NCBI GenBank assembly: GCA_947165185.1 | Contig: CAMUZL010000003.1 | Location: forward strand, 1 to 38,876 | From: an uncultured Selenomonadales bacterium | GTDB taxonomy: Bacteria; Bacillota; Negativicutes; Selenomonadales; Selenomonadaceae | Direction: 5' to 3' | Length of the DNA: 38,876 nucleotides | In this document: piece after piece, positions 11,571-33,827 of the stretch | How positions within the stretch are numbered: position 1 is the first letter of the stretch | Layout of the letters: the number at the start of each line of letters is the position of its first letter | Notes under the pieces: model-generated | The model's database searches: none | What the model was told of the DNA's origin: nothing | What the model saw: only the letters and a program-made list of their open reading frames with translations | Translations under genes and position numbers: made by a program

Positions 11571-14501
11571 GTGAATACTTTGGCACAGGAAAAAGTTGAA
11601 AGTTCGGCGGCGGCGAAAAAAGAAATGGCTCCTCAAAACAAGCGTCGCAAAGAACTGGGAGTTGAGGTTCATAATTTTGATGGCGATTCTGGTTATTTTT
11701 TTTCGGCCGAAGATTCTAGGTACATACGCGGTTTGACTACCGAACTTGAATTGGAGAAGCGATTTAATGTTGGAACTGGTCATTTTGAGCGTTCGGATAG
11801 GATGAATCTTTTACGGCGGTCGAAATTGTTTTTAGCGCGTCGTTCGTTTGCAGATTTGTCTGAGGAGAACAGACCGAAGTTATATGGTGCGAAAAATAAG
11901 ATTGAGACGGTGCTTGATTGTTTTCCGTCTGTAAAGTATTCGTATAGTTCATCGTTGCCTCCGAAAGTTGTTATGCGCAATCATGGTATACCTGAAGAAT
12001 TTTACGGTCGGTGTAAGCCGAATGAGGTGCGTTATTTTGATGTGTGTTGTGCGCCTGATGGTTCGTCGAAGAAGGCGCGAATGAGTGATGTCAGTCGTTC
12101 CGCTAATATTCGTTTAGACCCTATGGATGCTCCTCGTCAACTTTTCATTTATCGTTGTCGTATTCGGCGTTGTATTGCTTGGGGGTATTCTGTCGGGCTT
12201 GTGCCGATAATGATGACGTTGACGATATTTCACCGGTGGAATCCGTTGCGCGGACTTTTGCGCGTTCTCAGTCGTTCGTGGGATAGATTTTTTGCGTCTG
12301 GTCGTCCTGCAGTGACGCGAACGAAACAGATGGGAGTGCAGGCGTATATTCGTCGTCTTGAAGAGACTATCACGAACGGAAAAGGTACGCAGGGGTATAA
12401 TTCTGGTTGGCACCCGCACTATCACGTTATATTGTTCGTGCCTAAGGAAAACTTGTCGTTGATATCGGATATGGAGGAGGAGTTGCAAGAAGCGTGGTTT
12501 GAAATCGTCAATCATTTTTTTGCTAAGGAGTTTGGTGAAGAGATAGACCCTTCATATGCGTCCGCTTTTAAGAAGCACGGATTAGTTTTTAGTCGTTACA
12601 GCGATTTTGATATGAAGCCATCCGAGCGGAAAAAATCTCGTTGTGTGCGTTTTGCTAAGAGGCGGAAAAATGGCAAGCGTCCGATTCGTCCGGTTGACGA
12701 TAGCGATTATATGGCGAAGACGGTGGGTTGTGACCCGCAGATGTTGTATACGGGTGAGTCGGAGATGACGTCGATACACGCGAAAAATAGTCGTATACCG
12801 TTTGATTTACTGTGCGATGATACCGCTGAGAATAACGATTTATGGGTTGAATACGCGATTGCGACGAAGGGGCTTCGCAGTTTTGTTTTTTCGCGCGGTT
12901 TGGGTGGTCGCGTGCGCAAATATTTTGAAGCTCATCCTGAACGTGATTCCGTTAAGAGTTTTGTTAAGAGCGATAAGGTTGTCGCACAACTTGACAATAA
13001 CGTTTATCATTTACTTTATCGCACGTGTACAGTAGACAAGATGTTACGCGTTGCGGTGAAGGGGTATGATAGTCTGTGTGATTGGTTCACGGAGTTTTAT
13101 TTGAATCTTGGTTATACAGTTAGCGACATTACCGATGACATGATGCCGTTACCGCCTGGTACGTGTTCGCCCTTTGGAGATAGGTTAGATATTTTGACTT
13201 TATATAGAATGTCAAGGATTAAATCAAACGACATAACCGTCAAAACGCCGTGCGCGTCGGTGCGTGATGGGGAAGCGCGAGCGGAGAAAAAGTCAAATAC
13301 AAAACGGCCTCGCGACGCGAAAATTTTCAAAGAGTCGACAACGAGCGCAATATCAGCTACACAGTTTCAAACAACCGTATCTGCGCCGTCTCCGTTCGCT
13401 ACAACGTCACCGACAGTCACGACATCTACACTGCAATTAAAAACCGCGTCGTCATCGGCAACAGCGTCAGGCACTAGTTCACATCCGATTCAATTAGAGC
13501 TACAGTTTTATCCTGATGCGCCGTGCGCGTCGGTGCGTGATGGGGAAGCGCGAGCGGAGAAAAAGTCAAATACAAAACGGCCTCGCGACGCGAAAATTTT
13601 CAAAGAGTCGACAACGAGCGCAATATCAGCTACACAGTTTCAAACAACCGTATCTGCGCCGTCTCCGTTCGCTACAACGTCACCGACAGTCATGACATCT
13701 ACACCGCAATCAAAAACCGCGTCGTCATCGACCGATACATCGCCCTTATCGACATCTGTCGAGCCTTCGTCTGTATCTGCGCCGTCGATAACTACGACTG
13801 ATACGGTAACGCACTCTACAGTTATTGAATCGTCATCTCCGTCTGCATCTGCCGTCGCCGCCGATTTTCCGCTCGCTCCCGCGTCGTCTTCTGCAAACGT
13901 CGAATTTTCGTCGGCTGCAAACGATTCTGTATCCGCGTCGGCGCCGCCTGTTTCGTCACAATCATCGGATGAAGACTCACTTGACGATGATGCGTCAGAT
14001 ATCTACGACAGCGCTTCAGCGGACGCTGCCCGCAAAGAAGACAAAGAAGATTTGCCTGGCGAAGGTTTTCTACTCGACGCCCGCACCAGACACATTCGTT
14101 TGCTTAAGAATATATCTGATGCGCTGGTAACACATCGTTTGTGTGGACAGAATATTAGTCAAGAGACTCTTGATATGGTCGCGGAGTCTTTGGAGAAGGA
14201 GCTCCAAGTAGTTCTTGCAAATCCCGATGCGAAACTTTCCAAATTCGACGACATTCCGTCAGCGCCTTCTGTGCCGGACGATTTCTCAGATTCCGATGAG
14301 GTTTGGATGTCTTCGGAGTCTTATTCCCCCTTTGAAAAGTTTGATGATAATTCTATTGAGGCGCGTCTTAATGAGGTGTCTAATTCGAAATGGTATCCTG
14401 ACTGGTATAAAGCGCGTCTCAGGAATTTGAAGGCGTCCTCCGATTGTGCCGCCGCGAATTCCGCGTCTGTCGCAGATATCCACAAGCGACATTCATCTTA
14501 A
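11571..14501 (+). CDS. Rep-like HUH endonuclease protein with long disordered tail
   Basis: 976-aa protein whose first half resembles rolling-circle plasmid replication initiators of the pUB110/pC194 (Rep_1) type. Visible are motif I (MMTLTIFH), the HUH metal-binding motif HPHYH (residues 281-285, within GWHPHYHVILFV) and the tyrosine motif DYMAK (Y380, K383), followed by the family's S-R-x-P-F-x-L-L phrase (NSRIPFDLLCDD). Residues about 560-840 are Ser/Thr/Ala/Pro-rich and probably disordered, with a 91-residue in-frame tandem duplication. The C-terminal 130 residues look folded again. Arg is often CGT here, unlike the neighbouring genes, which suggests foreign origin. The GTG at 11571 has only a poor binding site; the TTG at 11580 is an alternative. 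No plasmid maintenance or mobilisation genes surround it. Confidence 0.75.
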   Translation: MNTLAQEKVESSAAAKKEMAPQNKRRKELGVEVHNFDGDSGYFFSAEDSRYIRGLTTELELEKRFNVGTGHFERSDRMNLLRRSKLFLARRSFADLSEENRPKLYGAKNKIETVLDCFPSVKYSYSSSLPPKVVMRNHGIPEEFYGRCKPNEVRYFDVCCAPDGSSKKARMSDVSRSANIRLDPMDAPRQLFIYRCRIRRCIAWGYSVGLVPIMMTLTIFHRWNPLRGLLRVLSRSWDRFFASGRPAVTRTKQMGVQAYIRRLEETITNGKGTQGYNSGWHPHYHVILFVPKENLSLISDMEEELQEAWFEIVNHFFAKEFGEEIDPSYASAFKKHGLVFSRYSDFDMKPSERKKSRCVRFAKRRKNGKRPIRPVDDSDYMAKTVGCDPQMLYTGESEMTSIHAKNSRIPFDLLCDDTAENNDLWVEYAIATKGLRSFVFSRGLGGRVRKYFEAHPERDSVKSFVKSDKVVAQLDNNVYHLLYRTCTVDKMLRVAVKGYDSLCDWFTEFYLNLGYTVSDITDDMMPLPPGTCSPFGDRLDILTLYRMSRIKSNDITVKTPCASVRDGEARAEKKSNTKRPRDAKIFKESTTSAISATQFQTTVSAPSPFATTSPTVTTSTLQLKTASSSATASGTSSHPIQLELQFYPDAPCASVRDGEARAEKKSNTKRPRDAKIFKESTTSAISATQFQTTVSAPSPFATTSPTVMTSTPQSKTASSSTDTSPLSTSVEPSSVSAPSITTTDTVTHSTVIESSSPSASAVAADFPLAPASSSANVEFSSAANDSVSASAPPVSSQSSDEDSLDDDASDIYDSASADAARKEDKEDLPGEGFLLDARTRHIRLLKNISDALVTHRLCGQNISQETLDMVAESLEKELQVVLANPDAKLSKFDDIPSAPSVPDDFSDSDEVWMSSESYSPFEKFDDNSIEARLNEVSNSKWYPDWYKARLRNLKASSDCAAANSASVADIHKRHSS
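13246..13730 (+). repeat. In-frame tandem duplication within the Rep-like gene
   Basis: Bases 13246-13457 recur at 13519-13730, offset 273 bases (exactly 91 codons), with about three mismatches over 212 bases. The unit encodes a charged opening (ASVRDGEARAEKKSN) followed by Ser/Thr-rich sequence. The 61 bases between the copies are unique. Near identity implies a recent duplication or ongoing copy-number change. Confidence 0.92.
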
Positions 14502-14606
14502 CGGCCTTTAAGTTTCCGCCGCCGCGAATTTTTCCGCTCGCCGCAGTTCAACTACACACGCCGATTTTATTTTATCACACGCGAACGATTTTGTGTGCAC
14601 CGCCCG

Positions 14607-14632
14607 AAAAAAAATCCCGACCGCAGTCGGGA
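14607..14632 (-). terminator. Intrinsic terminator of glgB
   Basis: Read on the minus strand: TCCCGAC, loop TGCG, GTCGGGA, then eight T. It lies 32 bases past the glgB stop. The 162-base region between the Rep-like gene and glgB holds nothing else clear, apart from a 14-base direct repeat (14527-14540 and 14646-14659). Confidence 0.85.
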
Positions 14633-14663
14633 ACTTGTGAACGGAAATTTTTCCGCTCGGGCT

Positions 14664-16682
14664 TTACGCTTTCTTTCTGAGGACGACGGCGGAACGAGCG
14701 GGAATATAGAGCTTGAGCCAATCTTTATCTTGTCTGTCGTAAACCGGGTCATAGTTAGTCAAATGCGGCACGGAGTCATCCGTCAAACCGAACCCGCCGA
14801 ACTTTTTATCGTCGGTGTTGAGCACGACATCATACTCGCCTTTGGGGACGAGGAAGCCGTAGTCGGTGAAAGATTTCGTCGGCGAGAAGTTGAAGACGAA
14901 CACGAGATTTCCGCGCATGTACGCAAGGATTTGATCAGCGTCGTCGTGCCAGATTTCGCGCACAGGTAACGTTTCAATTCCCGGCTCTGACTTAATGACG
15001 GCGAGCATTTCACGATCAAAGTCACCGAGCCAGTGATAGCACAGTTCCTTGTTATCGAGCAAATTCCATTGCCGCCGCGCATATTTGTAAGACCAGCCGT
15101 TTCCTTCGCGCGGGAAATCAATCCATTCCGGGTGACCGAATTCGTTGCCCATGAAGTTGAGATAGCCGCCGTTGCATGTTGAGGCCGTGACAAGCCGAAT
15201 CATTTTGTGTAGAGCGATACCGCGATTTGCGACGTCATTTTCGTCACCCTTCTTGAAGTGCCAATACATGTCGGCATCAATCAAGCGGAAAATAATCGTC
15301 TTGTCACCGACGAGTGCTTGGTCGTGACTTTCCGCATACGAGATAGTTTTTTCGTCAGCGCGGCGATTCGTCAACTCCCAGAAAATCGACGACGGTTTCC
15401 AATCTTCGTCGCGTTTTTCTTTAATCGTCTTAATCCAGTAATCGGGGATATTCATCGCGAGCCGATAATCGAAACCGAATCCGCCGTCCTCGAATTTGCT
15501 TGCGAGCCCTGGCATACCGCTGACATCTTCGGCGATAGTGACGGCGTCGGGCTTGACTTCATGAATCATTTTGTTCGCCAGCATCAGATAACAAATTGCG
15601 TTGTCGTCTTGGTGCCCGTTGAAGTAATCGCCGTAACTCATGAAAGCTTCGCCGAGCCCGTGGCTGTAATACAGCATTGAAGTGATTCCGTCGAACCGGA
15701 ACCCGTCGAAGTGGAATTCTTGCAGCCAATATTTGCAGTTACTCATCAGGAAATGCAGCACGTCATCTTTTCCGTAATCGAAGCAGAGGCTGTCCCACGC
15801 GGGGTGTTCGTGGCGGTCACCTTCATAAAAGAACTGATTGGGGTCGCCCGCGAGATTTCCGAGCCCTTCGACTTCATTCTTAACCGCGTGGCTGTGAACG
15901 ATATCCATGATAACCGCGAGCCCCATCTGATGTGCGGCGTCAATCAACTCTTTAAGTTCTTCGGGAGTGCCGCAACGACTTGACGGCGCGAAAAACGAGC
16001 TGACGTGATAACCGAAACTCCCGTAGTAGGGATGTTCCTGAATCGCCATGATTTGAACGGCGTTGTAGCCGGCTTTTTTTATCCGCGGCAAAATGTTATC
16101 TTTGAATTCGGTATACGTTCCGACTTTTTCCGCGTCCTGCGCCATTCCGACATGACATTCATAAATGAGCAACGGGCTTTTATCGATTTTGAAACCGTCA
16201 TCATTCCAAACATGCGGCTTTTCGGGGTCCCAAACTTGAGCGGAAAAAATTTTCGTCTTTTCATCCTGCACGACTCTTTGACACCACGCGGGAATTCGTT
16301 CGCCTTCGCCGCTGTCCCAGCGCACATTCATTTTGTACAAGTCGCCATGTTTCAACTTATCGGCGGACAACTTCAATTCCCAATTTCCGTTTTCAAGCCG
16401 TTTGCAACGATAAGCCTCGTCTTTTTTCCAGCCGTTGAAGTCGCCAATCAAATGAATATCCGTGGCGTGCGGTGCCCATTCGCGGAAAACCCAGCCGCCG
16501 TCGCTTGTGCGGTGCAGACCGAAATACAAATGTCCGTCGGCGAAATCGGAGAGCGTGCGTTTACCGTCTTGCGTGAGTTGAGAAATTTTCCAGAGCGCGT
16601 GATCGTGGCGGCCGCGAATTGCGTTTTCATACGGCTCAAGCCACAAATCCTTTTCAACCAACCCGATGTGTTTTTGACTCAT
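14664..16682 (-). CDS. glgB: 1,4-alpha-glucan branching enzyme
   Basis: Glycogen branching enzyme, 672 aa, which transfers alpha-1,4 chains to alpha-1,6 positions. An N-terminal CBM48-like domain (VFREWAPHATDIHLIGDFNGW) precedes a GH13 barrel with the nucleophile Asp331 (GFRFDGITSM), the acid/base Glu385 (TIAEDVSG) and the His-Asp pair in YAESHDQALVGDKT, then a C-terminal all-beta domain. The overall sequence, including YFGYHVSSFFAPSSRCGTPEELKELID and NEFGHPEWIDFPREGN, is of the eukaryote/Bacteroidetes style (GH13_8-like) rather than the E. coli style. The ATG at 16682 has an AAAGGATGG site. It is a single gene with its own promoter and terminator; no other glycogen genes are adjacent. Confidence 0.95.
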   Translation of the reverse strand: MSQKHIGLVEKDLWLEPYENAIRGRHDHALWKISQLTQDGKRTLSDFADGHLYFGLHRTSDGGWVFREWAPHATDIHLIGDFNGWKKDEAYRCKRLENGNWELKLSADKLKHGDLYKMNVRWDSGEGERIPAWCQRVVQDEKTKIFSAQVWDPEKPHVWNDDGFKIDKSPLLIYECHVGMAQDAEKVGTYTEFKDNILPRIKKAGYNAVQIMAIQEHPYYGSFGYHVSSFFAPSSRCGTPEELKELIDAAHQMGLAVIMDIVHSHAVKNEVEGLGNLAGDPNQFFYEGDRHEHPAWDSLCFDYGKDDVLHFLMSNCKYWLQEFHFDGFRFDGITSMLYYSHGLGEAFMSYGDYFNGHQDDNAICYLMLANKMIHEVKPDAVTIAEDVSGMPGLASKFEDGGFGFDYRLAMNIPDYWIKTIKEKRDEDWKPSSIFWELTNRRADEKTISYAESHDQALVGDKTIIFRLIDADMYWHFKKGDENDVANRGIALHKMIRLVTASTCNGGYLNFMGNEFGHPEWIDFPREGNGWSYKYARRQWNLLDNKELCYHWLGDFDREMLAVIKSEPGIETLPVREIWHDDADQILAYMRGNLVFVFNFSPTKSFTDYGFLVPKGEYDVVLNTDDKKFGGFGLTDDSVPHLTNYDPVYDRQDKDWLKLYIPARSAVVLRKKA

Positions 16683-16788: not shown

Positions 16789-16817
16789 TTGCCTGCGCGT
16801 AAATCTTCATTTATAAT
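16789..16817 (+). promoter_or_regulatory. Sigma-70-type promoter of the PglZ operon
   Basis: TTGCCT (16789-16794), a 17-base spacer and a perfect TATAAT (16812-16817), 40 bases ahead of the ATG at 16857. It diverges from the glgB promoter with only 23 bases between the two -35 elements, so a regulator binding here could affect both. Confidence 0.7.
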
Positions 16818-16856: not shown

Positions 16857-18260
16857 ATGTCTGACAAGATGTTGAAGAAAATTCTCGTCGTTATATCTGA
16901 AAATTTTTCAAACGGTGTGCGTGCAGATTTCATTACCGACAATCAAATCCGCCGCGCCTACAAACTCAAATACAGCGGCGAAGAAATCCCCGTGTCGTTC
17001 AGCGTGACGAACTTCATCAAAAAAGTTTCGTTTTATTACGGCGGTAAATATTATTTTGTAACGGCGTTGAATCGCGGGCGAGTGTTCCGTTTGGTCGACA
17101 AGGTTTTGAACGCGGGGAACATGATAGTTTACTACGAAGAATTTTTCGCTCGTTATCGCGGCAAATTGAATGATTGGCACGTGAAGACGCCGTCGGTTTT
17201 GGGAGCTTTGTTGCGCACGAACGACAGCCAATATTATTTCTCCGACAAATATTTTGCGGTGAACAAATTCGTCAGGTTGGGAGACGTGATTGAATACAAA
17301 GTTCGTTCGTTACCTGCTTGCGTTCCGTTTACTGTCGAACAAATTCACGAGAACTTGCCGTATGTTCCTCTTCAAGAAATTGAACGGGCATTGAGTAACC
17401 CGCGCAAATACTCGAAATCCATTGACGGGAAATATCTTTTGACAGAGCAGCTTGCGTTTGACCTTACCGAAATCAATGAAATTCGCAGTGGATTGTTGAG
17501 CGATTTAAAAACCGACGGGCACGCGATATTCAACGCGCAAGATTTTCCAAACACTCTTGCTTTGAATCCCGAATTCAGCGAGGCGACAATTCGCGGTGTA
17601 TTGTTTGACCGTTTTTTTTCCAAAGAATTTTCGCGTCACGGAAATATTTTGACAGTGCGCGGGGCGGCGTTCGGCGGTTTGAACTTACTTAAAAGATTTT
17701 GTTCATTGCGCGACGAAGTGACGTTGAACGAGCTGAACGACCGAGCGAAAAAGTTGGGCATTATCCGTCAAGCGTCGATTATTGAAGCGGCACTCGAAAC
17801 GATGATTCGCGTTTCAAAAAATATTTTCGTGAAGGACGAGTTTATCAAATTTCACACTTTAGCGATTGACGAAGCTTTGACCCCGTTTGTTCAAGGCAGA
17901 ATCATTGCGTTGCGTGACGTGAAAAGTTTTGAGAAATTTGAGCCGGCGAAAGATACACGCGGCTTTGAGTGGGAATGGAACGTGTACTTGCTTGAAAGTT
18001 TTTTGCGTAAAGTCAGCCGCAAATACAAATTTCACACTTCAAAGGCGACCAATCTGGTGAACGGCGCGATTTGTCCGCGAGACAAAGTTTTTTTGAACTA
18101 TGTCGACTTGATGTCGGCGGTGGTTGTGCAAGAAAATATCCCGCTGGATACAAATGCTATAGACGCATTTTTAATCGAAAAAAATTTCCGAACGAAGCGC
18201 GTCGAAAGGTTGAGCACGTCGATAATCGAGCGGGCGCACGTCATGAGTTTGGCGATATGA
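16857..18260 (+). CDS. Unknown protein, first gene of the PglZ operon (467 aa)
   Basis: I do not recognise this family. It is soluble, with no signal peptide or membrane segments. It seems built from several successive helix-helix-strand units of 70-100 residues that look like winged helices. Examples are residues about 1-75 (VVISENFSNGVRADFITDNQIRRAYKLKY ... KKVSFYYGGKYYFVTAL), about 175-200 and about 220-275 (a hairpin-like HGNILTVRG at its end), so a multi-domain DNA-binding role is possible but inferred. It starts at ATG 16857 after an ideal AGAGGAGG and its own promoter. A terminator-like hairpin separates it from the next gene. Position at the head of an ATPase-PglZ operon suggests a regulator or a DNA-recognition subunit. 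Confidence 0.8.
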   Translation: MSDKMLKKILVVISENFSNGVRADFITDNQIRRAYKLKYSGEEIPVSFSVTNFIKKVSFYYGGKYYFVTALNRGRVFRLVDKVLNAGNMIVYYEEFFARYRGKLNDWHVKTPSVLGALLRTNDSQYYFSDKYFAVNKFVRLGDVIEYKVRSLPACVPFTVEQIHENLPYVPLQEIERALSNPRKYSKSIDGKYLLTEQLAFDLTEINEIRSGLLSDLKTDGHAIFNAQDFPNTLALNPEFSEATIRGVLFDRFFSKEFSRHGNILTVRGAAFGGLNLLKRFCSLRDEVTLNELNDRAKKLGIIRQASIIEAALETMIRVSKNIFVKDEFIKFHTLAIDEALTPFVQGRIIALRDVKSFEKFEPAKDTRGFEWEWNVYLLESFLRKVSRKYKFHTSKATNLVNGAICPRDKVFLNYVDLMSAVVVQENIPLDTNAIDAFLIEKNFRTKRVERLSTSIIERAHVMSLAI

Positions 18261-18285
18261 ATTACATAACTGAACGAAAAAAAAA

Positions 18286-18316
18286 CCCGCCTTGAAGAAT
18301 TTCACGGCGGATTTTT
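18286..18316 (+). terminator. Terminator-like attenuator after the first PglZ-operon gene
   Basis: CCGCC (18287-18291) pairs with GGCGG (18306-18310) and TGAA with TTCA inside, with one mismatch between the stems, loop GAAT, followed by ATTTTTC. The upstream A-run could also serve the opposite strand. The AAGGAGG site of the next gene begins only five bases later, so partial read-through is expected. Confidence 0.6.
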
Positions 18317-18335
18317 CATAAGGAGGCGAAAAACC

Positions 18336-19085
18336 TTGTCGAGTTTGAACGCGTTTGACAGTTGTCCGCCGAAGCAAGATTGGCTGCGCCGATTTATCGA
18401 CGAGCCGCGAGAATTTTTGACACATCCCGGCTTGGACAGCAGGCAATTTTACAGTTTCTGCATATTTCTTCGTGGTGCGCAGTTGTTGGAGAAAAAATCT
18501 GTAACGAGCTTTGCTTATCTCCTAAAAAATTTCGGTTGGGACAGAGAGTCGGCACTTGCTCTTATGCTGGTGAATTTAGTTGCGAGCAACGTGCAAATTC
18601 GATGGTTCGTAGAAAATTTTCCGCTTGAAGAAACTCTGACACGTTCTGAAGTTGAAATGAAACTTTTATTGACGGGGCTGTCGAAAAGTTCAGCGAAAAA
18701 AGTTATGGGGAGTTTCGGGAAACTGAGCGGCACGGCTTTTGGAACGATTTTGAAATTTGGCAAGGCAACTTATATTGGCAATCAACTGATAACGTTGACG
18801 CGAACGAAAACGAAAATCACGGACGGGCGCGTAATTTTGTATTCACTCTATAAAATGGCGGAACGGTGCGGCGAACGGCAATTTACGTTGACTTCGCTAC
18901 TTGAAATTACTGAAAGCCCCGCGAAAATTTTTGGTCTGACGAGTGACGAACTCGAACAATTTTTAAACGGATTGAGCGCGAACTTTCCGGAATTTCTTGA
19001 CGCGACTTTTACACATGACCTTGAAAAAATATCGCTTGCGCCCGATAAAAATAGCAAAGACGTTTTGAAACTTTTTGAGGATTGA
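18336..19085 (+). CDS. Unknown protein, second gene of the PglZ operon (249 aa)
   Basis: No family recognised with confidence. It is soluble and mostly helical. The N-terminal 60 residues (WLRRFIDEPREFLTHPGLDSRQFYSFCIFLRGAQLLE) are followed by a helix-turn-helix-like stretch, FGWDRESALALMLVNLVASNVQIRWFVENF. A middle part GLSKSSAKKVMGSFGKLSGTAFG precedes a C-terminal helical region with FGLTSDELEQFLNGL. In size and operon position it is comparable to the small accessory proteins (BrxA, BrxB) of BREX loci, but I see no clear sequence match to either. The TTG start at 18336 lies 8 bases after a perfect AAGGAGG. Its stop is 2 bases from the ATPase start. Confidence 0.8.
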   Translation: MSSLNAFDSCPPKQDWLRRFIDEPREFLTHPGLDSRQFYSFCIFLRGAQLLEKKSVTSFAYLLKNFGWDRESALALMLVNLVASNVQIRWFVENFPLEETLTRSEVEMKLLLTGLSKSSAKKVMGSFGKLSGTAFGTILKFGKATYIGNQLITLTRTKTKITDGRVILYSLYKMAERCGERQFTLTSLLEITESPAKIFGLTSDELEQFLNGLSANFPEFLDATFTHDLEKISLAPDKNSKDVLKLFED

Positions 19086-19087
19086 CG

Positions 19088-22000
19088 ATGGACATCAGCT
19101 GGAACAAGTACGACATTTATTTTGAGGTTGATGCGGGCTACTATCCCGAAATCAACGAAGATTCGATTCAAGACCCAAAAAATCGTTGGGAGCAGACATA
19201 CGCGCACGAATCAGTTATCGCGACGATTGAGTCTTTGGAAAAAATTTTGAGTCGAGCCGGCAACACGGACAAAAAAGGGCTTTGGGTTGAAGGTTCTTAC
19301 GGGACGGGCAAATCGCGACTTTTGTGGACGTTGCGAAATTTGTTGGATTGTGCGCCCGAAAAATTAGTTGCTTACTTCAATGCGAACGAGGGTTTGCGCG
19401 ATAAAGTTGACCTTCGCGAAAAATTATTGGCGTTGAAAGCCGGCAAGATAGTGACGGCCTCTCGATATGCGTCGGGCGAAATTTTATCGACGCGGAATTT
19501 GATACATGCCGTATTTGACAGCTTGACCGCCTCTTTAAAAAAATCCGGCTACAAGTTCAACGGCTCGAAAACTTTGCGCGGGAAAATAGTTTCGTGGTTG
19601 GAGGCCGACGAAGCGAACATGCAACTTTTTCGTGCCAAAATTCAAAATCCGAAGTATCGCGGAATCGGAGCTTTTGCGGGCAAAACGGCCGCCGAAATAC
19701 TTGACCGCCTTAAAAATTCTGATTTGTCGATTGATGAGCTTGTCAACGAAATTTTGAATTTGGGCGAGCGCGAAGGAATTCGGGCATTTGAAATCGACAT
19801 TGACGATTTAAAACACTGGATAGCCGAAGTCATTGACGCGAACAAACTCAAAGCGATAGTTTTCTTTTGGGACGAGTTCACAGATTTTTTCAATAGCAAC
19901 CGAAACAATCTCGGCGACTTTCAAAAACTGGTTGAGCTGGTGAACCTCAAGCCGTTTTATCTGGTTATAGCGACGCACATATCGGCGGGCATGGGCAATG
20001 ACGAATCCTTCAAAAAGTTGCGCGACCGATTTATCGGGCGGAACATCACGATGCCGAACAACATAGCGTTTGAATTGATTGGGCACGCATTGAAAATCAA
20101 ACCGGCGGCGGAACGCGACTGGCAATTCATTTCTGCCGCATTGAAAGATCGCACGCGGAAATCGCGCCGAGCGGTGGCGGAGTATATCAAAGCTTCCGAA
20201 AAAATTTTATCGGGGATATTACCGATACACCCGATGGCTGCGCTGATGTTGAAAAACATCTCGACATATTTCGCGTCGAATCAGCGGAGCATGTTCAACT
20301 TTATCAAAACTGATTCAGTGGACGCTGAAGGATTTCAGCAATTCATAGCGACGCGAAGCCCGCAAGTCGGCGACCTGCTGACGACGGATTATCTCTGGAA
20401 ATTTTTTTACGAGCAGGGGACGGACGAACACGTTACGGGGCGCGGGCGCACGAATTTGGATTTGGTTATCGCGACGATACTTGATTCATTTTCGCGTTAC
20501 ACAGAATTTTTCGAGCTTTCTCATCTCGAAAAAACTGTTTTGAAAACGATATTGATGATGGAAGCGGTGACGCGGAAATCGCAACTTGAGCGAGTGAAAT
20601 TGTTGCAACCGAGCGCGGCGAACCTTGAATTGACGTTCGAGGGTGTTGACGAATTGGACGGCGGAGTTGCGCTGAACATAGCCCGCGACCTTGTCACGAA
20701 AAAAATATTATATCGGCAGGCGGGGACTGAAGAAATTTTTGCGACGGCGGCGGTATCGGGCGACCAAGCGAAAATCGACGAGCAACGGGAAGCGGTTTTA
20801 AAAAATTTCCGCTTATCGACTTTGATTGAAGAAAATCGATTCAGCGAAGAATTTATTTTGTCGGCATCGCAACGGAGTCGATTAAAAGTCGAAGTGGCGA
20901 CGTTGGAAAATTTACCGACAAAGGCGACGAAACTTGTCCGCGATTTAAAAATTTATCAAGTCGGAATGCTTGTATGTTTTGCGCGTGACGAAATTGAGCG
21001 ACAGAAATTGACAGTGCGAATTCGTGAACTTTCTGTGACTGAACAATATCGTTCATTGATTTTTGTTGACGCGGGCGAAAATTATTTTGGCGTCGAGCGA
21101 TTGAATCGTTGGTCGGATTACATGTCGCACGCTGAATATTGGCGCACGCGAGATTTGCATTTATCTGAGCAAAATCAATCGAATGCTGAGGAAGTTGTTC
21201 GGGAGTGGCGGCGTGAGTTTCGTGACGGGGCGTTTGTAATATATCCGGCTTTACCAAAAATGCAAACGGAGCGACGTGCAATAACGTGTGCGAGCTTGAA
21301 GGGTCTTCGGGAGGAACTCGCCAAAAATATAATCGAACTGTATCCTTTGACATTTGATAATGCGGACGTGGCGGAGTCGTTATTTTTGACGAACGCGAAC
21401 AGTTTCCGCAAGGGCGCACAGTTGGGAATTACCGAAGAAACATACGGTCTTTACAGTCAAGCGGCAGTGCAAAAAATTTTGGGTGAAGTGTGGCGGCGCG
21501 AAAGTTTGTATTGGGAGTTACAGCCAGCGTTACCGATTTCCTCATTGAAAATATTGGCTGACAAATTTATCGCTGAGCAACTGACGAAAAATCAGCGCGT
21601 TTCTTTTGACGAAATAATTGAGTTGCTGATGACGAACGGGTTCATGCCGTGCAACCTGTATGCAATATTAACCGGCTTTCTCCTGAAAGAATACGCAAGC
21701 GAGCGATATCGATATATAGAGGGGAGTGCCGCCCGCGTCGCAGACGCGGGCGGCACACTAACCACCGAGCGATTGGCAACATTTATCGCTGAGTGCATGA
21801 ACCATATGCTTTCTTCTAAAAAAAATCATCGCGAAATGTTTATCGAAGTCATGTCGAAAGGCCAACGCGAATTCTTGAAATTTTCGCATGAAGTTTTCGG
21901 AACGGCAGAAAATATGCAGATTGAGCAAACTGCAAATAAAATTCGAGCGCGGTTAAATGAAACGAAGCGGATTTTATGGTTAAGCGAACAAGTAGCGACG

Positions 22001-23281
22001 GAACAATACAAACCGTTTTGTCGGCAACTGATTCAACTGGTAAACGCGCAGGATGGGGATTTTGTGTCGGGAATGGTCGAGCAAATGGGCAATTTTCTGA
22101 TGACCGGCAGTTTTCACGTTAAACGATTAAAAATGTTGTTGACGGGTAAAGAATCAAGACTGGCACTGGAAAAATATTTGCGGGAGTATTCTGGCGGCGC
22201 ATTGTTTGAAGTTGCGGCAGTCACAAATATACTTGATGAAGTTCAAAAAAAATTGACGGGCACGGCATTATGGTCGAAATCTGCGGCAAACGGCGTCATC
22301 GATAAATTATTATTAGAACACAAAATCATAATGGCGAGTCGAGCGGTCGGAATAGAATCTGAAAGGTTTGCGGAATGCGTTGGATCGTGGATTGAGCGGC
22401 TGAAATTTGTCCGTGTGCCGAGTGAAATTTTAATCGAACAATTCCCAACCTTATCAAAATTTTTCGAGATCCTGCGGTTGGTTGTAAATCGCGGCGAACT
22501 GTCGGACGATATGCGTGCAAGTTTTCTGGCGGCTTTGGTGGAAAATGCGAGTCAGATACGAACGATACTGAATGGCGACGCGAGAATTTTGACGCAACGA
22601 TTTTCCGAACAATTTGCGGAATTGAGCGCGTCTGATAAGAAAAAAGTCATAGCGAGCTTGCCGACAAGTTCATTTATCGACGGGCGTCAAGAATTTGAAC
22701 GGCGATTGACAATTCTGGCGGATGACGTAAAAAATAAACGGTTGAATTCTGAACTGAAGCGGCAGTGGAAAAAAATGACGTTGAGCGAAAGTCCGCAGGC
22801 ATGGTCGCGAAAAAATCGAACACCAATTCTTTTAATGATTGAAGTTGAGGAGCGAGCGACGGCGCGTCGAGCGTTCGCGGCGGTGACGAGCGAGACTGCA
22901 AATGCGTCCGAAATAGAATTTGCGACGCGATATTTGAATTCAAAAACGTTATTCGGCGAGCGGTTGAATGACAAAAACAGCATAGACGAAGCCTTCAAAA
23001 AAGAATTACTCGGCGACAAAAGATTTTTGTTGAGCGATTTGGACGAAGTGCGAACGGCATTGGAAAAAAATTTTGGTGAGGCGTACACGTGGAGCGAAAG
23101 CGTAGAGGTGCAAACCTTTCTTGAAAAAATGGCGCGGGAAAAGTATTTTTCCGGAGCGAGCGAACGAGCGGCGGAAAAGTTGCAAACGATGGGCAGTGAC
23201 CGAGTGAAAGAATTTTTGCTCAAGCTGATTCGCGAAAATTATGCGGTCGGAATGGAGATATTGCGCGGTGACGAGAAATGA
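19088..23281 (+). CDS. Giant BrxC/PglY-like P-loop ATPase
   Basis: About 1397 aa, cytoplasmic. The N-terminal part is an AAA-like ATPase with Walker A GSYGTGKS (residues 69-76, within LWVEGSYGTGKSRLLWTLRNLL) and Walker B FFWDEFTDFF (D262, E263). The opening, with WNKYDIYFEVDAGYYPEINED and HESVIATIESLEKIL, and the very long helical C-terminal region of about 900 residues resemble the large ATPases found next to PglZ in BREX-type and related systems (BrxC/PglY, DUF499-like). The closest family cannot be fixed by eye. The ATG at 19088 was chosen over TTG 19082 because GAGG lies 7 bases ahead. It overlaps the pglZ-like gene by 4 bases (ATGA). A perfect 14-bp hairpin lies in its coding sequence at 21726-21756. 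Confidence 0.85.
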   Translation: MDISWNKYDIYFEVDAGYYPEINEDSIQDPKNRWEQTYAHESVIATIESLEKILSRAGNTDKKGLWVEGSYGTGKSRLLWTLRNLLDCAPEKLVAYFNANEGLRDKVDLREKLLALKAGKIVTASRYASGEILSTRNLIHAVFDSLTASLKKSGYKFNGSKTLRGKIVSWLEADEANMQLFRAKIQNPKYRGIGAFAGKTAAEILDRLKNSDLSIDELVNEILNLGEREGIRAFEIDIDDLKHWIAEVIDANKLKAIVFFWDEFTDFFNSNRNNLGDFQKLVELVNLKPFYLVIATHISAGMGNDESFKKLRDRFIGRNITMPNNIAFELIGHALKIKPAAERDWQFISAALKDRTRKSRRAVAEYIKASEKILSGILPIHPMAALMLKNISTYFASNQRSMFNFIKTDSVDAEGFQQFIATRSPQVGDLLTTDYLWKFFYEQGTDEHVTGRGRTNLDLVIATILDSFSRYTEFFELSHLEKTVLKTILMMEAVTRKSQLERVKLLQPSAANLELTFEGVDELDGGVALNIARDLVTKKILYRQAGTEEIFATAAVSGDQAKIDEQREAVLKNFRLSTLIEENRFSEEFILSASQRSRLKVEVATLENLPTKATKLVRDLKIYQVGMLVCFARDEIERQKLTVRIRELSVTEQYRSLIFVDAGENYFGVERLNRWSDYMSHAEYWRTRDLHLSEQNQSNAEEVVREWRREFRDGAFVIYPALPKMQTERRAITCASLKGLREELAKNIIELYPLTFDNADVAESLFLTNANSFRKGAQLGITEETYGLYSQAAVQKILGEVWRRESLYWELQPALPISSLKILADKFIAEQLTKNQRVSFDEIIELLMTNGFMPCNLYAILTGFLLKEYASERYRYIEGSAARVADAGGTLTTERLATFIAECMNHMLSSKKNHREMFIEVMSKGQREFLKFSHEVFGTAENMQIEQTANKIRARLNETKRILWLSEQVATEQYKPFCRQLIQLVNAQDGDFVSGMVEQMGNFLMTGSFHVKRLKMLLTGKESRLALEKYLREYSGGALFEVAAVTNILDEVQKKLTGTALWSKSAANGVIDKLLLEHKIIMASRAVGIESERFAECVGSWIERLKFVRVPSEILIEQFPTLSKFFEILRLVVNRGELSDDMRASFLAALVENASQIRTILNGDARILTQRFSEQFAELSASDKKKVIASLPTSSFIDGRQEFERRLTILADDVKNKRLNSELKRQWKKMTLSESPQAWSRKNRTPILLMIEVEERATARRAFAAVTSETANASEIEFATRYLNSKTLFGERLNDKNSIDEAFKKELLGDKRFLLSDLDEVRTALEKNFGEAYTWSESVEVQTFLEKMAREKYFSGASERAAEKLQTMGSDRVKEFLLKLIRENYAVGMEILRGDEK
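21726..21756. repeat. Perfect 14-bp GC-rich hairpin inside the large ATPase gene
   Basis: Bases 21726-21739 pair perfectly with 21743-21756 around loop GCA. It encodes SAARVADAGGT in frame, a segment of different composition from the flanking protein, as if a small palindromic element had been inserted without breaking the frame. Confidence 0.8.
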
Positions 23282-25029
23282 ACGAGGCAAAGGCGAAAAT
23301 TTCGGCGTACTTGAGCGGCGCGGATAAACATGCATATTTTGTTGCAGTCGACGGCGCGGAATATATGGATATTAGAAATTTTTTGCGTGATATGTCTGCA
23401 ATTCGACTCAGCAATTTTTGTCGTGGCGATGTTTTTCCTGATGGTGACGAATTTATCGAAGCGGCACAGAAATTATCCGGCAACGCGCTAGCTTTGGGAG
23501 TCGGAGAATTTACGGCGTTAAGCGGAAATTATCGGCTGATAAATCGGTTACGTTCTTTGACTTTCAAAAAAAAATTAGTGGTATTGTGTCGCGGCGTGAA
23601 AAATTTTTTGTTGCGGCTGGCGACTGAAAATCCGAAGTTCCGAAAAAATTTGAGCGTTGTGGAATCGTCGGATAGTTTTTCAGTGACGCAATATTTACCT
23701 AATCTTGGTGTCAAAACGGCGTCGAAAAATTTCCGTGAACTTTTACTCGCTCTTGAAGACGGAGTGACGGGCGCGGTCGAAGTCAATTCGGAGTTATTGC
23801 TTGAAAAAGTTTTTCGAGTGGCGACGGCATATGATGCGATAAAATTGCGCGAACCCGAATTACGGTCACCACGGACGGCGTTGAATGAAAATCAGTGGCG
23901 AAAAGTTTTAAACGGCGACAAAACCTGGTCAAAATATTTGCGCGGCTTTAGCGAAGGCTTTGCGAACAAATACGAACAATTTGCTTTTGAGCAGTCGGCG
24001 AATTTTGAGGAATTCGAGCGAAACATTTTCGACGCTCTCTTAAAAATCAAACCCGGTTCGCGGGAATTCACCGAGCTTTACAACTTGCGGAAAGTTTTGG
24101 TTGCCGGTAACGAAAAATTTTTGCCTGGCTATATTGACGCGGCGAAAGCGTTCGGAGCTGACGGGATTTATTATTTGACCGACAACACGCTTTTGGAATT
24201 TCGGGCGGCGATGGAGTTGGCGGCGTCTGCGTCAAATCGTTCAGTTCTGGAAAAGAATTTCCCCACAGTGCGAAAATACTTGACGGTTTTTGATTTTGGA
24301 GACGAGAGGTTGACGGAATATTTTCGACTGTACAAGGAGCTGAAATTGTTTAACGTTGTTTCAAAAGAATTCTTGTCGCAGGTTGAAAAATTTTCGGCTA
24401 TGCGAATTTACAACGAGCTTGAAACGCGGCAAGCGATTTTGGAGCGAACGGGCGGTGGAAAATTGTATTGGCTGGACGGGTTGAGCGTTGACTTTTTGGG
24501 TTACATAAAATCACGTCTTTCCGAAATGGGTTTTCGGTCGAAGATACAAACGGCGCGAGCGGAATTACCGACATTGACTTCAATAAACAAAGATTTTTAC
24601 GCTGAATGGCCGTGGGAAAAATTTCCGAAAAATGAGCGTCTCGACAAACTGCGGCATGAAACGCAAAAAGTGTCGGTTTATTTTTGTGACGAAATCTTTA
24701 TAATTGAAGACATGCTGAAGGAAATTTCTGCGGCGTTGAAGAACGGCGAAACTTCCAAAGTTATTTTAACGAGCGATCACGGTTCGAGTCGCGGAGCGGT
24801 GATTTGTCGCGGGCGAACGATAAAGTTGCAGTTGACGGGCGAACATGGCGGGCGTTGTTGCAAAGTCGACGAACGCGACGCGAAGCCGATTTGCGCAGTT
24901 GAATCGAACGGATATTTTTCTTTGACGAATTACGACCGAATTCAAGGCGGGCGACTCGAAGGCGTGGAAATGCACGGCGGCGCGACGCTTGAAGAAGTTT
25001 TGGTGCCGGTGATAGAAATTTTTGCGTGA
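23278..25029 (+). CDS. pglZ: PglZ-domain protein
   Basis: 583-aa protein with a C-terminal PglZ domain of the alkaline phosphatase superfamily, as found in BREX and related phage defence systems. Candidate metal-binding motifs are D400 in LYWLDGLSVDFLGYI, D500-H501 in LTSDHGSSRG, and H566 in EMHGGATLEEVLVPVIEI, the standard PglZ ending. It is shorter than typical BREX PglZ (about 800-900 aa); the N-terminal 380 residues are probably an interaction domain. The ATG overlaps the ATPase stop (ATGA), implying translational coupling. No PglX methyltransferase or BrxL follows; instead a sensor kinase gene begins 13 bases downstream. Confidence 0.88.
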   Translation: MNEAKAKISAYLSGADKHAYFVAVDGAEYMDIRNFLRDMSAIRLSNFCRGDVFPDGDEFIEAAQKLSGNALALGVGEFTALSGNYRLINRLRSLTFKKKLVVLCRGVKNFLLRLATENPKFRKNLSVVESSDSFSVTQYLPNLGVKTASKNFRELLLALEDGVTGAVEVNSELLLEKVFRVATAYDAIKLREPELRSPRTALNENQWRKVLNGDKTWSKYLRGFSEGFANKYEQFAFEQSANFEEFERNIFDALLKIKPGSREFTELYNLRKVLVAGNEKFLPGYIDAAKAFGADGIYYLTDNTLLEFRAAMELAASASNRSVLEKNFPTVRKYLTVFDFGDERLTEYFRLYKELKLFNVVSKEFLSQVEKFSAMRIYNELETRQAILERTGGGKLYWLDGLSVDFLGYIKSRLSEMGFRSKIQTARAELPTLTSINKDFYAEWPWEKFPKNERLDKLRHETQKVSVYFCDEIFIIEDMLKEISAALKNGETSKVILTSDHGSSRGAVICRGRTIKLQLTGEHGGRCCKVDERDAKPICAVESNGYFSLTNYDRIQGGRLEGVEMHGGATLEEVLVPVIEIFA

Positions 25030-30137: not shown

Positions 30138-33100
30138 GTGGGAAATATTTTCAAGAAGTTAAAATATTTAAGCCCGCTTGAGCGCAACGAACACCAGCAG
30201 ATAAACAAAGGCGGCCGCGAATGGGAGAGCATGTATCGCGATCGTTGGTCGTTCGATAAATGCGTTCGTTCGACGCACGGCGTAAATTGCACAGGCTCAT
30301 GCAGTTGGAATATTTACGTCAAAAACGGTCTTGTGGCGTGGGAAAATCAAGTGCACGATTATCCCGAAACGTCACCGGAAATGCCGGATTTTGAGCCGAG
30401 AGGTTGCCCGCGTGGCGCAAGTTTTTCGTGGTATTTGTGCAGCCCGCACCGAATTCGCTATCCTTATATGCGTGGGGAATTGGCGGAACTGTGGCGAGAG
30501 GTGCGCAAAAAATATCCGACGGCGTTGGCGGCGTGGCAGTCAATCGCGAACGATCCTTCAAAAATGAAACTTTACAAGCAAGCCCGCGGCATGGGCGGTT
30601 TTGTGCGTTCAAATTGGGATGAGGTCAGCGAATTGGTTGCGGCAAGTGTTTTGCATACGGCGCAAAAATACGGTCCCGACAGAATTTTCGGGTTCTCCGT
30701 CATTCCCGCGAAATCGATGCTCAGTTACGCGGGCGGCATGAGATTTATTCAACTTTTGGGCGGCGCGGGTTTGAGTTTTTACGACTGGTACGCGGATTTG
30801 CCTCCCGCCAGTCCGCAAGTATGGGGCGACCAAACCGACGTTCCCGAAAGCAGCGACTGGTTTAACGCGGGCTATATCATCACGTGGGGTTCAAATGTGC
30901 CGCAGACTCGAATGCCCGACGCGCATTTTTTGACGGAAGCGCGCTACAAAGGCACGAAGGTTGTATCAATCGCGCCCGACTATGCCGAGTCGACGGCTGT
31001 CGCGGACACGTGGATAAGTTTGAAAACCGGTTCCGACTCTGCGTTTGCGATGGCAATGGGTCACGTGATTTTGCGCGAATATTATCGGGACAATCCCGCC
31101 GAATTTTTCGTTGACTACGCCCGCAAATTTACCGACTTTCCGTTTTTGGTCACTCTCGCCGAACGCGACGGCAAATATTATCCGAGTCGTTTTCTGAACG
31201 CGAAAGATTTCGGGCGCACGGACAAGCACGCTGAATTCAAACATTTTGTTATCGACGAAAAGACGGGCAAGTTTGTTGTGCCGAACGGAACGATGGGCGA
31301 CCGTTGGGATCGTCAAGATAAATGAAATTTGCGCTCCGAGAATTCGGACACGGGCGAAGAAATAATTCCGAAGTTGTCTATTCTTCGCGAACGTGATGAT
31401 GTTGTCGAATTGATGTTGCCGTATTTTGGAAACGACCGCGGCGAAAAGTCGATGATAAGTCGCGCCGTTCCCGTGAAAAAAATCAAAACTTGTGACGGCG
31501 TGAAGATTGTCACAACTGTTTACGATTTGACGCTTGCGAACTACGGGATTGACACGGGACTTGGCGGCGAATGCGCGTCGAGTTACGAAGATGACACGCC
31601 TTATACTCCTCGTTGGCAAGAAAAATTTACGGGCGTCAAAGCTGAAATGGTAATTCACACGGCGCGGGAATTTGCTGACAATTCTTTGAAAACTCACGGG
31701 CGGACAATGGTAATCATGGGCGGCGGAATCAATCATTGGTTCCACGCTGATGTTATTTATCGTACAATTTTAAATCTGCTGATGATGTGCGGCTGCGAAG
31801 GACGCAACGGCGGCAGCTGGGCACATTACGTCGGGCAAGAAAAATTGCGGCCGATTGAAGGTTGGGCGCGAGTGATGACGGGCACGGATTGGCAAGGCGG
31901 CGCGAAGTTGCAAAATTCAACTTCGTTTTATTATTTTGCAACCGACCAATGGCGCAACGAGGAAATTGACACGGCACCGCTTGTTTCGCCCGACACGACA
32001 CCGCGCTATCGTCACCCTAGCGACTACAATATTATGGCGGCTCGGCTCGGTTGGTTGCCTGCTTATCCGTGTTTCAACAAAAGTGGGCAGAAAATTTTCG
32101 ACGAGGCGACTGCGGCGGGCTTTGAAGGTATCGATGGCATTCGCAAATTTGTGGCGCAGAGTTTGAAAAATCGCACGTTGGAATTTTCATGGGAAGACCC
32201 CGACGCGCCCGAAAATTTCCCGCGTAACTTGTTCATTTGGCGAAATAATTTAATCGGCTCGTCGTCGAAGGGACACGATTACTTTTTAAAATATCTGCTC
32301 GGCACGCGCAACAGTATTTTTGCCGAAGAAGAATCCGTCGTCAAACCGCAAGAAATAAAGTGGCGTGACGAATCCGAAATTTCGGGCGAAGGCGGCGCGC
32401 TGCAAGGCAAGTTGGATTTGTTGGTTGACCTTGATTTTCGTATGGCGGCGTCCGCGCTGTATTCGGATGTGGTTTTGCCGACAGCGACTTGGTACGAAAA
32501 AGACGACCTTTCCTCAACCGACATGCATCCGTTCGTTCACCCGTTTCAAGCGGCGGTGGATCTGATTTGGGAAGCGCGGAGCGATTGGGACATTTTCCGC
32601 ACGTTAGCGAAGGCGGTTTCAAAAGTTGCGACGGAGGCGGAGTTGCCCGTTTACAAAGATGTTTTCGCCGTTCCGATACAGCACGACACGGAAGGCGAGA
32701 CGGCTCAACCCGAAGGCAAAATTTTGGATTGGAGCAAAGGCGACTGCGAACCCGTTCCCGGAAGAAAAACGATGCCCGCGATTGCGATGATTGAGCGCGA
32801 TTACACGAAACTTTATGACAAATGGGTTGCTCTCGGACCCGCGATTCAAAAAGGCAACGGCATGAAAGGACTCGGCTGGGCGTCCGACGATTTGTACGAA
32901 GAAATTCGCACGCGCAACGGCGTTGTCGAAGATAAAAATTTGATTTCTTACGGAATGCCGTCGCTTTACACCGCGAAAAAAGCTTGCGATGCGGTGATGG
33001 GCTTGTCGACGACGACGAACGGAAAAGTTGCAGTTCGTGCTTGGCGCGACCTTGAACGTAAAACTGGCTTGAGCGACTTGACGAAATTGGCGAGTGACCG

Positions 33101-33827
33101 CGAAAGTGAACGTTTTACTTTTGAAATGGTTGCGATACAGCCGCGGGAAACAATCACGTCGCCGACGTTCACGGGCTCGAATCAAAATCGCCGCTACTCT
33201 CCGTTTACCGTGAGCATTGAGCAACTTGTTCCGTTTCGCACGGTAACGGGGCGACAAAGTTTTTATGTCGACCACGAATTAATGTTTGAGTGGGGCGAGT
33301 CGATGAGCGTTTACAAACCGATTCTTGACTTTAAGCCTTTGAAAAATCCGCTTGGGCAGTCGAAAGAAATCACGCTGAAATTTTTGACGCCGCACAATAA
33401 ATGGTCGACGCATTCAATGTATTTCGACAGTCAGCAAATGTTGACTTTGTTCCGTGGCGGGCAAACGGTTTGGCTCAACGAAAAAGATGCGGAAAGTATC
33501 GGCGTGCGCGACAACGATTGGTGCGAAGTTTACAACCGAAACGGCGTTGTCATTTCGCGTGCCGTTGTTTCACCGAGACTTCCACGCGGCGTAATGTTCA
33601 TGTATCACGCGCAAGACCGTCACATCAACGTTCCCGGCTCGAAAATTTCGGGCACACGCGGCGGGACGCACAACACGCCGACGCGAATTCACATGAAGCC
33701 GACGCACATGATTGGCGGCTACGGGCAGTTGAGCTACGGATTTAATTATTACGGGACGACGGGCAACCAGCGCGATATTTATGTCGTGGTGCGGAAGGCG
33801 CAGGAGGTTGATTGGCTTGAAGATTAA
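30138..33827 (+). pseudogene. narG: Nitrate reductase alpha subunit, interrupted by one in-frame TGA
   Basis: Catalytic subunit of membrane-bound nitrate reductase, full length at about 1229 codons, but split by a TGA at 31323-31325 into 395 and about 833 codons in the same frame. The flanking residues RQDK-stop-NLRSENSDTGEE align with the conserved KWNL...TGEE of NarG, so a TGG (Trp) codon has become TGA. Everything else looks functional: the FS0 cluster ligands (HGVNCTGSCSW and RGCPRGASFSW), the Mo-ligand Asp in VPQTRMPDAHF, and the molybdopterin-binding C-terminus with GGTHNTPTRIHMKPTHMIGGY. The GTG start at 30138 has AAGGAG. The second part begins with no ribosome binding site, so it is unlikely to be made alone. 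It could be a true nonsense mutation, a sequencing error, or a read-through stop. Confidence 0.9.

What the first reader, a model, noticed from the sequence alone, without database searches (positions are those of the whole stretch)
16857..25029. Methyltransferase-free four-gene PglZ/giant-ATPase operon, a candidate new defence system
Seen: four tightly packed genes with one good promoter, encoding two proteins of no recognisable family (467 and 249 aa), a 1397-aa P-loop ATPase and a short PglZ protein, with ATGA coupling between the last two. Known: the ATPase-PglZ pair is the core of BREX and of BREX-like modules reported alongside DNA phosphorothioation. Inference: this is a minimal or distinct branch, because the usual PglX, BrxL and Dnd/Ssp genes are absent from the window. 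It may work without modification, or borrow a mark made elsewhere in the genome.
Basis: partly seen in the sequence, partly recalled or inferred. Interest (0 to 1): 0.85.

Follow-up and report, generated by a model that had tools for sequence, protein, structure and literature searches.

The report
BREX-4 operon lacking its DNA writer
A rumen bacterium carries a cut-down copy of a known phage-defence system (BREX type 4) that has deleted the enzymes for chemically marking its own DNA yet keeps its DNA-binding, motor and nuclease parts under strong selection, which raises the testable question of how such a system avoids attacking its own cell.

Summary
The four genes are real, but they are not a new system built on an unknown plan. 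They are a reduced BREX type 4 operon. Gene 2 is the DUF4007 (SspB-like) C-terminal third of BrxP, gene 3 is BrxC and gene 4 is type-4 PglZ. Gene 1, here called G1, is a tandem winged-helix protein with no named family. G1 sits directly 5' of brxP in 71 of 80 loci from many phyla, so it looks like a common first gene of BREX-4 that the published descriptions I could read do not mention. Complete relatives read G1-brxP-brxC-pglZ-brxL-cysteine desulfurase. In the window the PAPS-reductase (phosphorothioate-writing) part of brxP, brxL and the desulfurase are gone. Sister loci lost the DUF4007 part too, leaving 3'-end remnants (clearest in G091). The writer-less state arose at least three times, and the retained genes stay under purifying selection (dN/dS about 0.06-0.27) with catalytic residues kept. 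The likely mechanism is a DNA-binding, ATPase-driven, nuclease-armed restriction module without its own self-mark. That step is inferred, not shown.

The parts
16789..16817 (+). promoter-like site TTGCCT-17-TATAAT upstream of G1
   Evidence: consensus scan only, not above the chance level for the region
16857..18260 (+). G1, 467 aa, tandem winged-helix protein; homologues directly 5' of brxP in most BREX-4 loci found with it
   Evidence: no Pfam/PADLOC/NCBIfam match; 71 of 80 genome-contig loci have BrxP immediately 3'; AlphaFold2 pLDDT 89.9, winged helices
18287..18310 (+). hairpin CCGCC...GGCGG followed by a T run, between G1 and gene 2; possible attenuator/terminator
   Evidence: conserved after G1 in L095, L097, L099, L100; only 2 genome places, both after G1; RNA fold -14.1 kcal/mol, z -1.84
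18336..19085 (+). DUF4007 (SspB-like) protein, 249 aa = C-terminal third of BrxP without the PAPS-reductase part
   Evidence: PADLOC BrxP 3.7e-50 over 523-775/779; DUF4007 2.1e-5
19082..23281 (+). BrxC/PglY ATPase (TTG 19082 or ATG 19088)
   Evidence: PADLOC BrxC 7e-209 full length; 58 of 59 family-conserved residues kept
19292..19315 (+). Walker A of BrxC (GSYGTGKS)
   Evidence: sequence; G71/Y73/G74/G76/K77 conserved in 97 complete-system BrxC
19871..19876 (+). Walker B of BrxC (D264-E265)
23278..25029 (+). type-4 PglZ, 583 aa: ORC/STAND-like N-terminal domain plus PorX-like phosphodiesterase domain, C-terminal tail absent
   Evidence: NCBIfam BREX_PglZ_4 285 bits, cut-off 140; PorX Z 15-16 over about 240 residues at 313-583, N-terminal ORC5-like Z 9 at 1-131, Acinetobacter PglZ (9zn5) Z 13.8
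24577..24579 (+). PglZ T434, invariant Thr; proposed equivalent of PorX T272 / E. fergusonii PglZ T538
   Evidence: invariant in A2; equivalence inferred from motif position, not from a residue-level structural superposition
24973..24975 (+). PglZ H566 (HGGATLEE), equivalent of PorX H500 / E. fergusonii H741
   Evidence: profile alignment to PorX

Best explanation
The locus is a BREX type 4 operon that lost its phosphorothioate writer (the PAPS-reductase part of BrxP and the cysteine desulfurase) and BrxL by deletion (shown by comparison), and has been maintained as a shorter module (shown: purifying selection, catalytic residues kept). Proposed mechanism, inferred: G1 (tandem winged helices) and DUF4007 (SspB/BrxA-like DNA binder) place the complex on target DNA; BrxC, an ORC/Cdc6-type ATPase, assembles there and moves or signals in an ATP-dependent way; PglZ, a metal-dependent phosphodiesterase/nuclease, nicks the DNA and blocks phage replication. 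As no self-mark is made by the locus, discrimination must come from the DNA sequence or state recognised (for example replicating or entering phage DNA), or, in genomes with a separate writer, from that mark.
For: Profile identities. Full-length relatives G1-BrxP-BrxC-PglZ-BrxL-DndA in the same family. Sister loci without BrxP carry remnants of its 3' end, e.g. L099 'FTRDSEKISPAFDKIAEDVLRLFED*' against window gene 2 'FTHDLEKISLAPDKNSKDVLKLFED*'. BrxC tree: writer-less state at least 3 origins, nested among complete loci. None of 5 writer-less loci with downstream sequence has BrxL beside it against 26 of 29 complete-BrxP loci (Fisher p=2e-4, not corrected for ancestry). dN/dS in the window clade: G1 0.09-0.12, BrxC 0.06-0.18, PglZ 0.17-0.27; second clade L101/L113 0.11-0.24. 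PglZ keeps 30/32 and BrxC 58/59 conserved residues. PglZ model has a PorX-like phosphodiesterase and an ORC/STAND-like domain. [quoted passage not shown]
Against: No experiment; anti-phage function is inferred from the family. The surroundings (Tad pilus, glgB, hybrid histidine kinase, nar genes) are not a defence island. PglZ carries two clade-wide changes beside the first metal-site Asp (G403S, E405D) and lacks its C-terminal tail. DUF4007 is kept only in the window copy, so it cannot be essential to the reduced form. The genome is a 71%-complete MAG, so a writer elsewhere could be missed.
Confidence: 0.6

Rival explanations
1. Split system: the module is the restriction half of BREX-4 and uses phosphorothioate marks made by another BREX-4/Ssp/Dnd locus in the same genome.
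For: G063 has complementary deletions: contig C143 keeps G1-BrxP-BrxC-DndA but lost pglZ and almost all of brxL in one deletion (brxL 3' remnant, 89% identical to L117), while C13 keeps G1-BrxC-PglZ without BrxP. G111 and G074 also have BrxP/PAPS elsewhere.
Against: No PF01507 hit in G000 (71% complete) or G091 (83%); in G099 and G106 only a 289-aa, non-BrxP protein and a sub-cut-off fragment. If a writer were always present, missing it in all four by incompleteness alone has a chance of about 0.004 (MAGs lose accessory genes more often, so this is a lower bound). Carriers are not enriched for writers (3/7 vs 29/66).
Confidence: 0.2
2. Decaying remnant of BREX-4 on its way to loss, without function.
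For: Stepwise loss of PAPS part, BrxL, DndA, PglZ tail and (in sisters) DUF4007; L122 (G106) has brxC split by a frame break.
Against: Intact ORFs in several divergent loci (dS about 0.35-0.9) with dN/dS 0.06-0.27, about the range of complete systems (0.16-0.20); conserved residues kept.
Confidence: 0.08
3. Repurposed module: G1-BrxC-PglZ now serves another DNA task (for example plasmid or replication control), not phage defence.
For: Chromosomal-type surroundings without other defence genes; clade-specific PglZ changes; long stem branch of the window clade in the BrxC tree (0.75 changes per site).
Against: No partner gene was seen to be shared among the reduced loci apart from the core genes; patchy distribution and several copies per genome are typical of defence loci.
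Confidence: 0.12

Closest known systems
BREX type 4 (brxPCZL, phosphorothioate-based)
   Same: BrxC, type-4 PglZ, the DUF4007 part of BrxP, gene order; G1 also precedes brxP in many BREX-4 loci
   Different: PAPS-reductase part of BrxP, BrxL and cysteine desulfurase absent; PglZ C-terminal tail absent; hairpin after G1
Ssp phosphorothioate system (SspABCD-E / SspFGH)
   Same: DUF4007 = SspB-like, BrxC = SspC-like (weak PADLOC hits)
   Different: No SspD or SspA in the locus; the effector is PglZ
BREX-related capture (BRC) systems: DUF6079 + PglZ + DUF4007 + STAND + HerA (PMC12839542)
   Same: Combination of BrxC-like ATPase, PglZ and DUF4007 without a PT or methyl writer
   Different: No HerA/FtsK, GNAT or TGT gene; here the proteins are type-4 BREX orthologues
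PbeABCD
   Same: Nothing beyond being linked to phosphorothioation
   Different: Pbe proteins are HKD-helicase, small protein, CxC ABC-ATPase and DndE (PMC10853773); none is here

Membership tests
BREX type 4 | type-4 PglZ | tested here: met
   NF033445 285 bits, cut-off 140
BREX type 4 | BrxC/PglY ATPase | tested here: met
   PDLC02485 7e-209, full length; Walker motifs kept
BREX type 4 | DUF4007/SspB-like part of BrxP | tested here: met
   PDLC02510 3.7e-50 over 523-775
BREX type 4 | PAPS-reductase (writer) part of BrxP | tested here: not met
   absent from gene 2; no PF01507 hit in the genome held; genome 71% complete
BREX type 4 | BrxL beside the core genes | tested here: not met
   none in the window; genome-wide search for BrxL not run
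BREX type 4 | cysteine desulfurase (in 56% of published loci) | tested here: not met
   none in the window
BREX type 4 | phosphorothioate modification of host DNA | not testable with these tools
   needs LC-MS/MS or PT-seq
BREX types 1-3, 5, 6 | PglX/BrxX methyltransferase | tested here: not met
   none in the window; NF033452 has no match over its cut-off in 6 genomes
PbeABCD | CxC ABC-ATPase, DndE, HKD nuclease-helicase | tested here: not met
   four proteins scanned; none of these families; composition from PMC10853773
Ssp | SspD PAPS reductase with SspB and SspC | tested here: not met
   SspB/SspC similarity only; no SspD

The most novel reading that the evidence does not exclude
BREX-4 can run without any self-mark: the G1-BrxC-PglZ core, evolved at least three times by discarding the phosphorothioate writer and BrxL, is a stand-alone DNA-sensing nuclease defence whose target choice is set by G1, a winged-helix protein that is an unrecognised component of BREX-4 in general.
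Probability: 0.3. Interest if true: 0.75.

Novelty: new variant of a known kind. Interest (0 to 1): 0.52.

Why it matters
In BREX the roles of writer, ATPase, PglZ and BrxL are hard to separate. Here nature has done the knock-outs: writer-less effector loci that stay under selection in several lineages, and, in one genome, an effector-less writer locus beside a writer-less effector locus. This makes the questions 'which BREX-4 proteins mark DNA, which restrict, and how is self spared without a mark' directly testable. G1, a widespread but unnamed first gene of BREX-4, is a candidate missing part for reconstitution experiments.

Tried and rejected
Looked for a methyltransferase role: none. Pbe and Ssp membership: rejected. 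Named family for G1: no hit in Pfam, PADLOC or NCBIfam; Foldseek and VIA gave generic winged-helix matches (SelB, UFL1, Z-alpha with Z about 9 over 58 residues), which I do not read as Z-DNA binding; BrxA, SspB and DndG structures did not appear among the listed rows, which proves nothing. Plasmids: no G1 homologue; only a weak BrxC-like match in Methanosphaera. Viral contigs: one G1 relative, not followed. Universality of G1 in BREX-4: tested on PglZ_4 loci drawn from the phylum; G1 upstream of BrxP in 5 by HMM plus 1 by profile-profile match out of about 11 loci with enough sequence, so common, not universal. Misassembly as the cause of the missing writer: rejected, since several independently assembled MAGs share the structure. 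First reading of L096 brxC used a wrong frame; redone.

Full report
What is there. The four ORFs exist at the stated coordinates. Gene 3 is a full-length BrxC (PADLOC E 7e-209) and gene 4 a type-4 PglZ (NCBIfam BREX_PglZ_4, 285 bits, cut-off 140). Gene 1 (G1) has no named family. BREX type 4 has no methyltransferase by definition: it uses a PAPS reductase and phosphorothioation (PMC12839542). The absence of PglX is therefore expected; what is missing is the PAPS-reductase part of BrxP, BrxL and the cysteine desulfurase.

Relatives. The genome is a MAG (2.27 Mb, 285 contigs, 71% complete); relatives are rumen Selenomonadaceae, one of them named Quinella. In 189 genomes of the family, G1 relatives occur in 39. 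Neighbourhoods of 40 loci show the complete form G1-BrxP-BrxC-PglZ-BrxL-DndA. The window has G1-DUF4007-BrxC-PglZ. Its closest relatives L095 (second locus in the same MAG), L097 (G063), L099 (G091) and L100 (G099) have G1-BrxC(-PglZ) with no gene 2. L101 (G111) is DUF4007-only, and L113 (G074) and L122 (G106) lack BrxP. None of the five writer-less loci with sequence beyond pglZ has BrxL or DndA beside it; 26 of 29 complete-BrxP loci have BrxL (Fisher p=2e-4, uncorrected for ancestry).

Derived by deletion. The gap between G1 and brxC in the BrxP-less loci still encodes the end of BrxP. L099 reads FTRDSEKISPAFDKIAEDVLRLFED* (window gene 2: FTHDLEKISLAPDKNSKDVLKLFED*), L122 reads EKNSADVLKLFDR*, and shorter pieces remain in L097, L100 and L113. 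A BrxC tree places the writer-less loci in at least three separate positions among complete ones (quick search, long branches noted by the program). The window clade has a long stem, so its exact position is less sure than its unity (support 100).

Maintained. Within the window clade dS is about 0.35-0.9 for most pairs and dN/dS is 0.09-0.12 (G1), 0.06-0.18 (BrxC) and 0.17-0.27 (PglZ). The second clade (L101/L113) gives 0.11-0.24 and complete systems 0.16-0.20. BrxC keeps 58 of 59 and PglZ 30 of 32 residues conserved in about 100 complete systems, including Walker A/B, D400, T434, D456, H460, D500-H501 and H566. The two PglZ changes (G403S, E405D) are shared by the clade. The PglZ model (pLDDT 88.7) has an ORC/STAND-like N-terminal domain and a PorX-like phosphodiesterase domain.

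G1. A genome-contig scan with the G1 alignment found 80 loci in Bacillota, Desulfobacterota, Spirochaetota, Bacteroidota, Synergistota, Planctomycetes, Chloroflexota, an archaeon and others. In 71, BrxP starts within 400 bp 3' of G1, in 5 (all writer-less Selenomonadaceae) BrxC does, and 4 are other cases. In many phyla the G1 region is the C-terminal part of a longer protein. From the other direction, about half of the PglZ_4 loci sampled across the phylum have a recognisable G1. The model (pLDDT 89.9) is a chain of winged helices. The BREX-4 descriptions I could read list BrxC, PAPS reductase, DUF4007, BrxL, PglZ and a desulfurase, and do not mention it. The primary BREX-4 paper (Yuan et al.) was not held, so novelty of G1 is not proven.

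Marks made elsewhere. No PF01507 protein in G000 or G091. G099 has a 289-aa protein (shorter than BrxP) and G106 a sub-cut-off fragment. G063, G111 and G074 have BrxP elsewhere. G063 is striking: its second locus keeps G1-BrxP-BrxC-DndA but lost pglZ and nearly all of brxL in one deletion, the mirror image of its writer-less locus. Across carriers, though, writers are as frequent as in the genus (3/7 vs 29/66).

How it probably works. Shown: ancestry, deletions, selection, conserved catalytic residues, folds. Inferred: G1 (and DUF4007 in this copy) bind target DNA, BrxC acts as an ATP-driven assembly, PglZ nicks. [quoted passage not shown] How the host is spared without a mark is open, and is the interesting question.

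Verdict. A new variant of a known kind: a repeatedly evolved writer-less, BrxL-less derivative of BREX-4, which fails the defining writer test for BREX-4 membership while clearly descending from it. The by-product, G1, may matter more widely.

Noticed in passing
window 30138-33827: narG is cut by an in-frame TGA (31323-31325) where relatives have Trp; nearly all genus homologues are intact, so a point mutation or assembly error in this copy.
   Followed up: yes
L126 (G076:C27) 4185-5210: A segment of about 1 kb with the pglZ 3' end and the brxL 5' half lies inverted inside an otherwise complete BREX-4 operon, with an imperfect 26-nt inverted repeat near it: possible invertible switch or assembly inversion.
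   Followed up: partly
L098 (G063:C143) 14578-14800: Clean deletion of pglZ and most of brxL in a PT-writer locus, leaving the last codons of brxL; a small Cys-rich ORF follows before the desulfurase.
   Followed up: yes
L132 2637-4685, L133 9932-11980, L110 1881-6492: G1-like regions in larger proteins: 682 aa outside BREX (L132, L133), and two in tandem before BrxP (L110; one with DUF4357).
   Followed up: no
window 11571-14501: 976-aa protein with a Rep_1-like region and a duplicated Ser/Thr-rich stretch, on the chromosome-like contig.
   Followed up: no
L200 2131-4932: ORF that joins the BrxP PAPS part to the BrxC C-terminal half (Fibrobacteria MAG): internal deletion or misassembly.
   Followed up: no
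G000 contigs C145 (L095) and C251 (L096): Further partial copies of the reduced module in the same MAG, each cut by contig ends; copies or strain mixture.
   Followed up: partly
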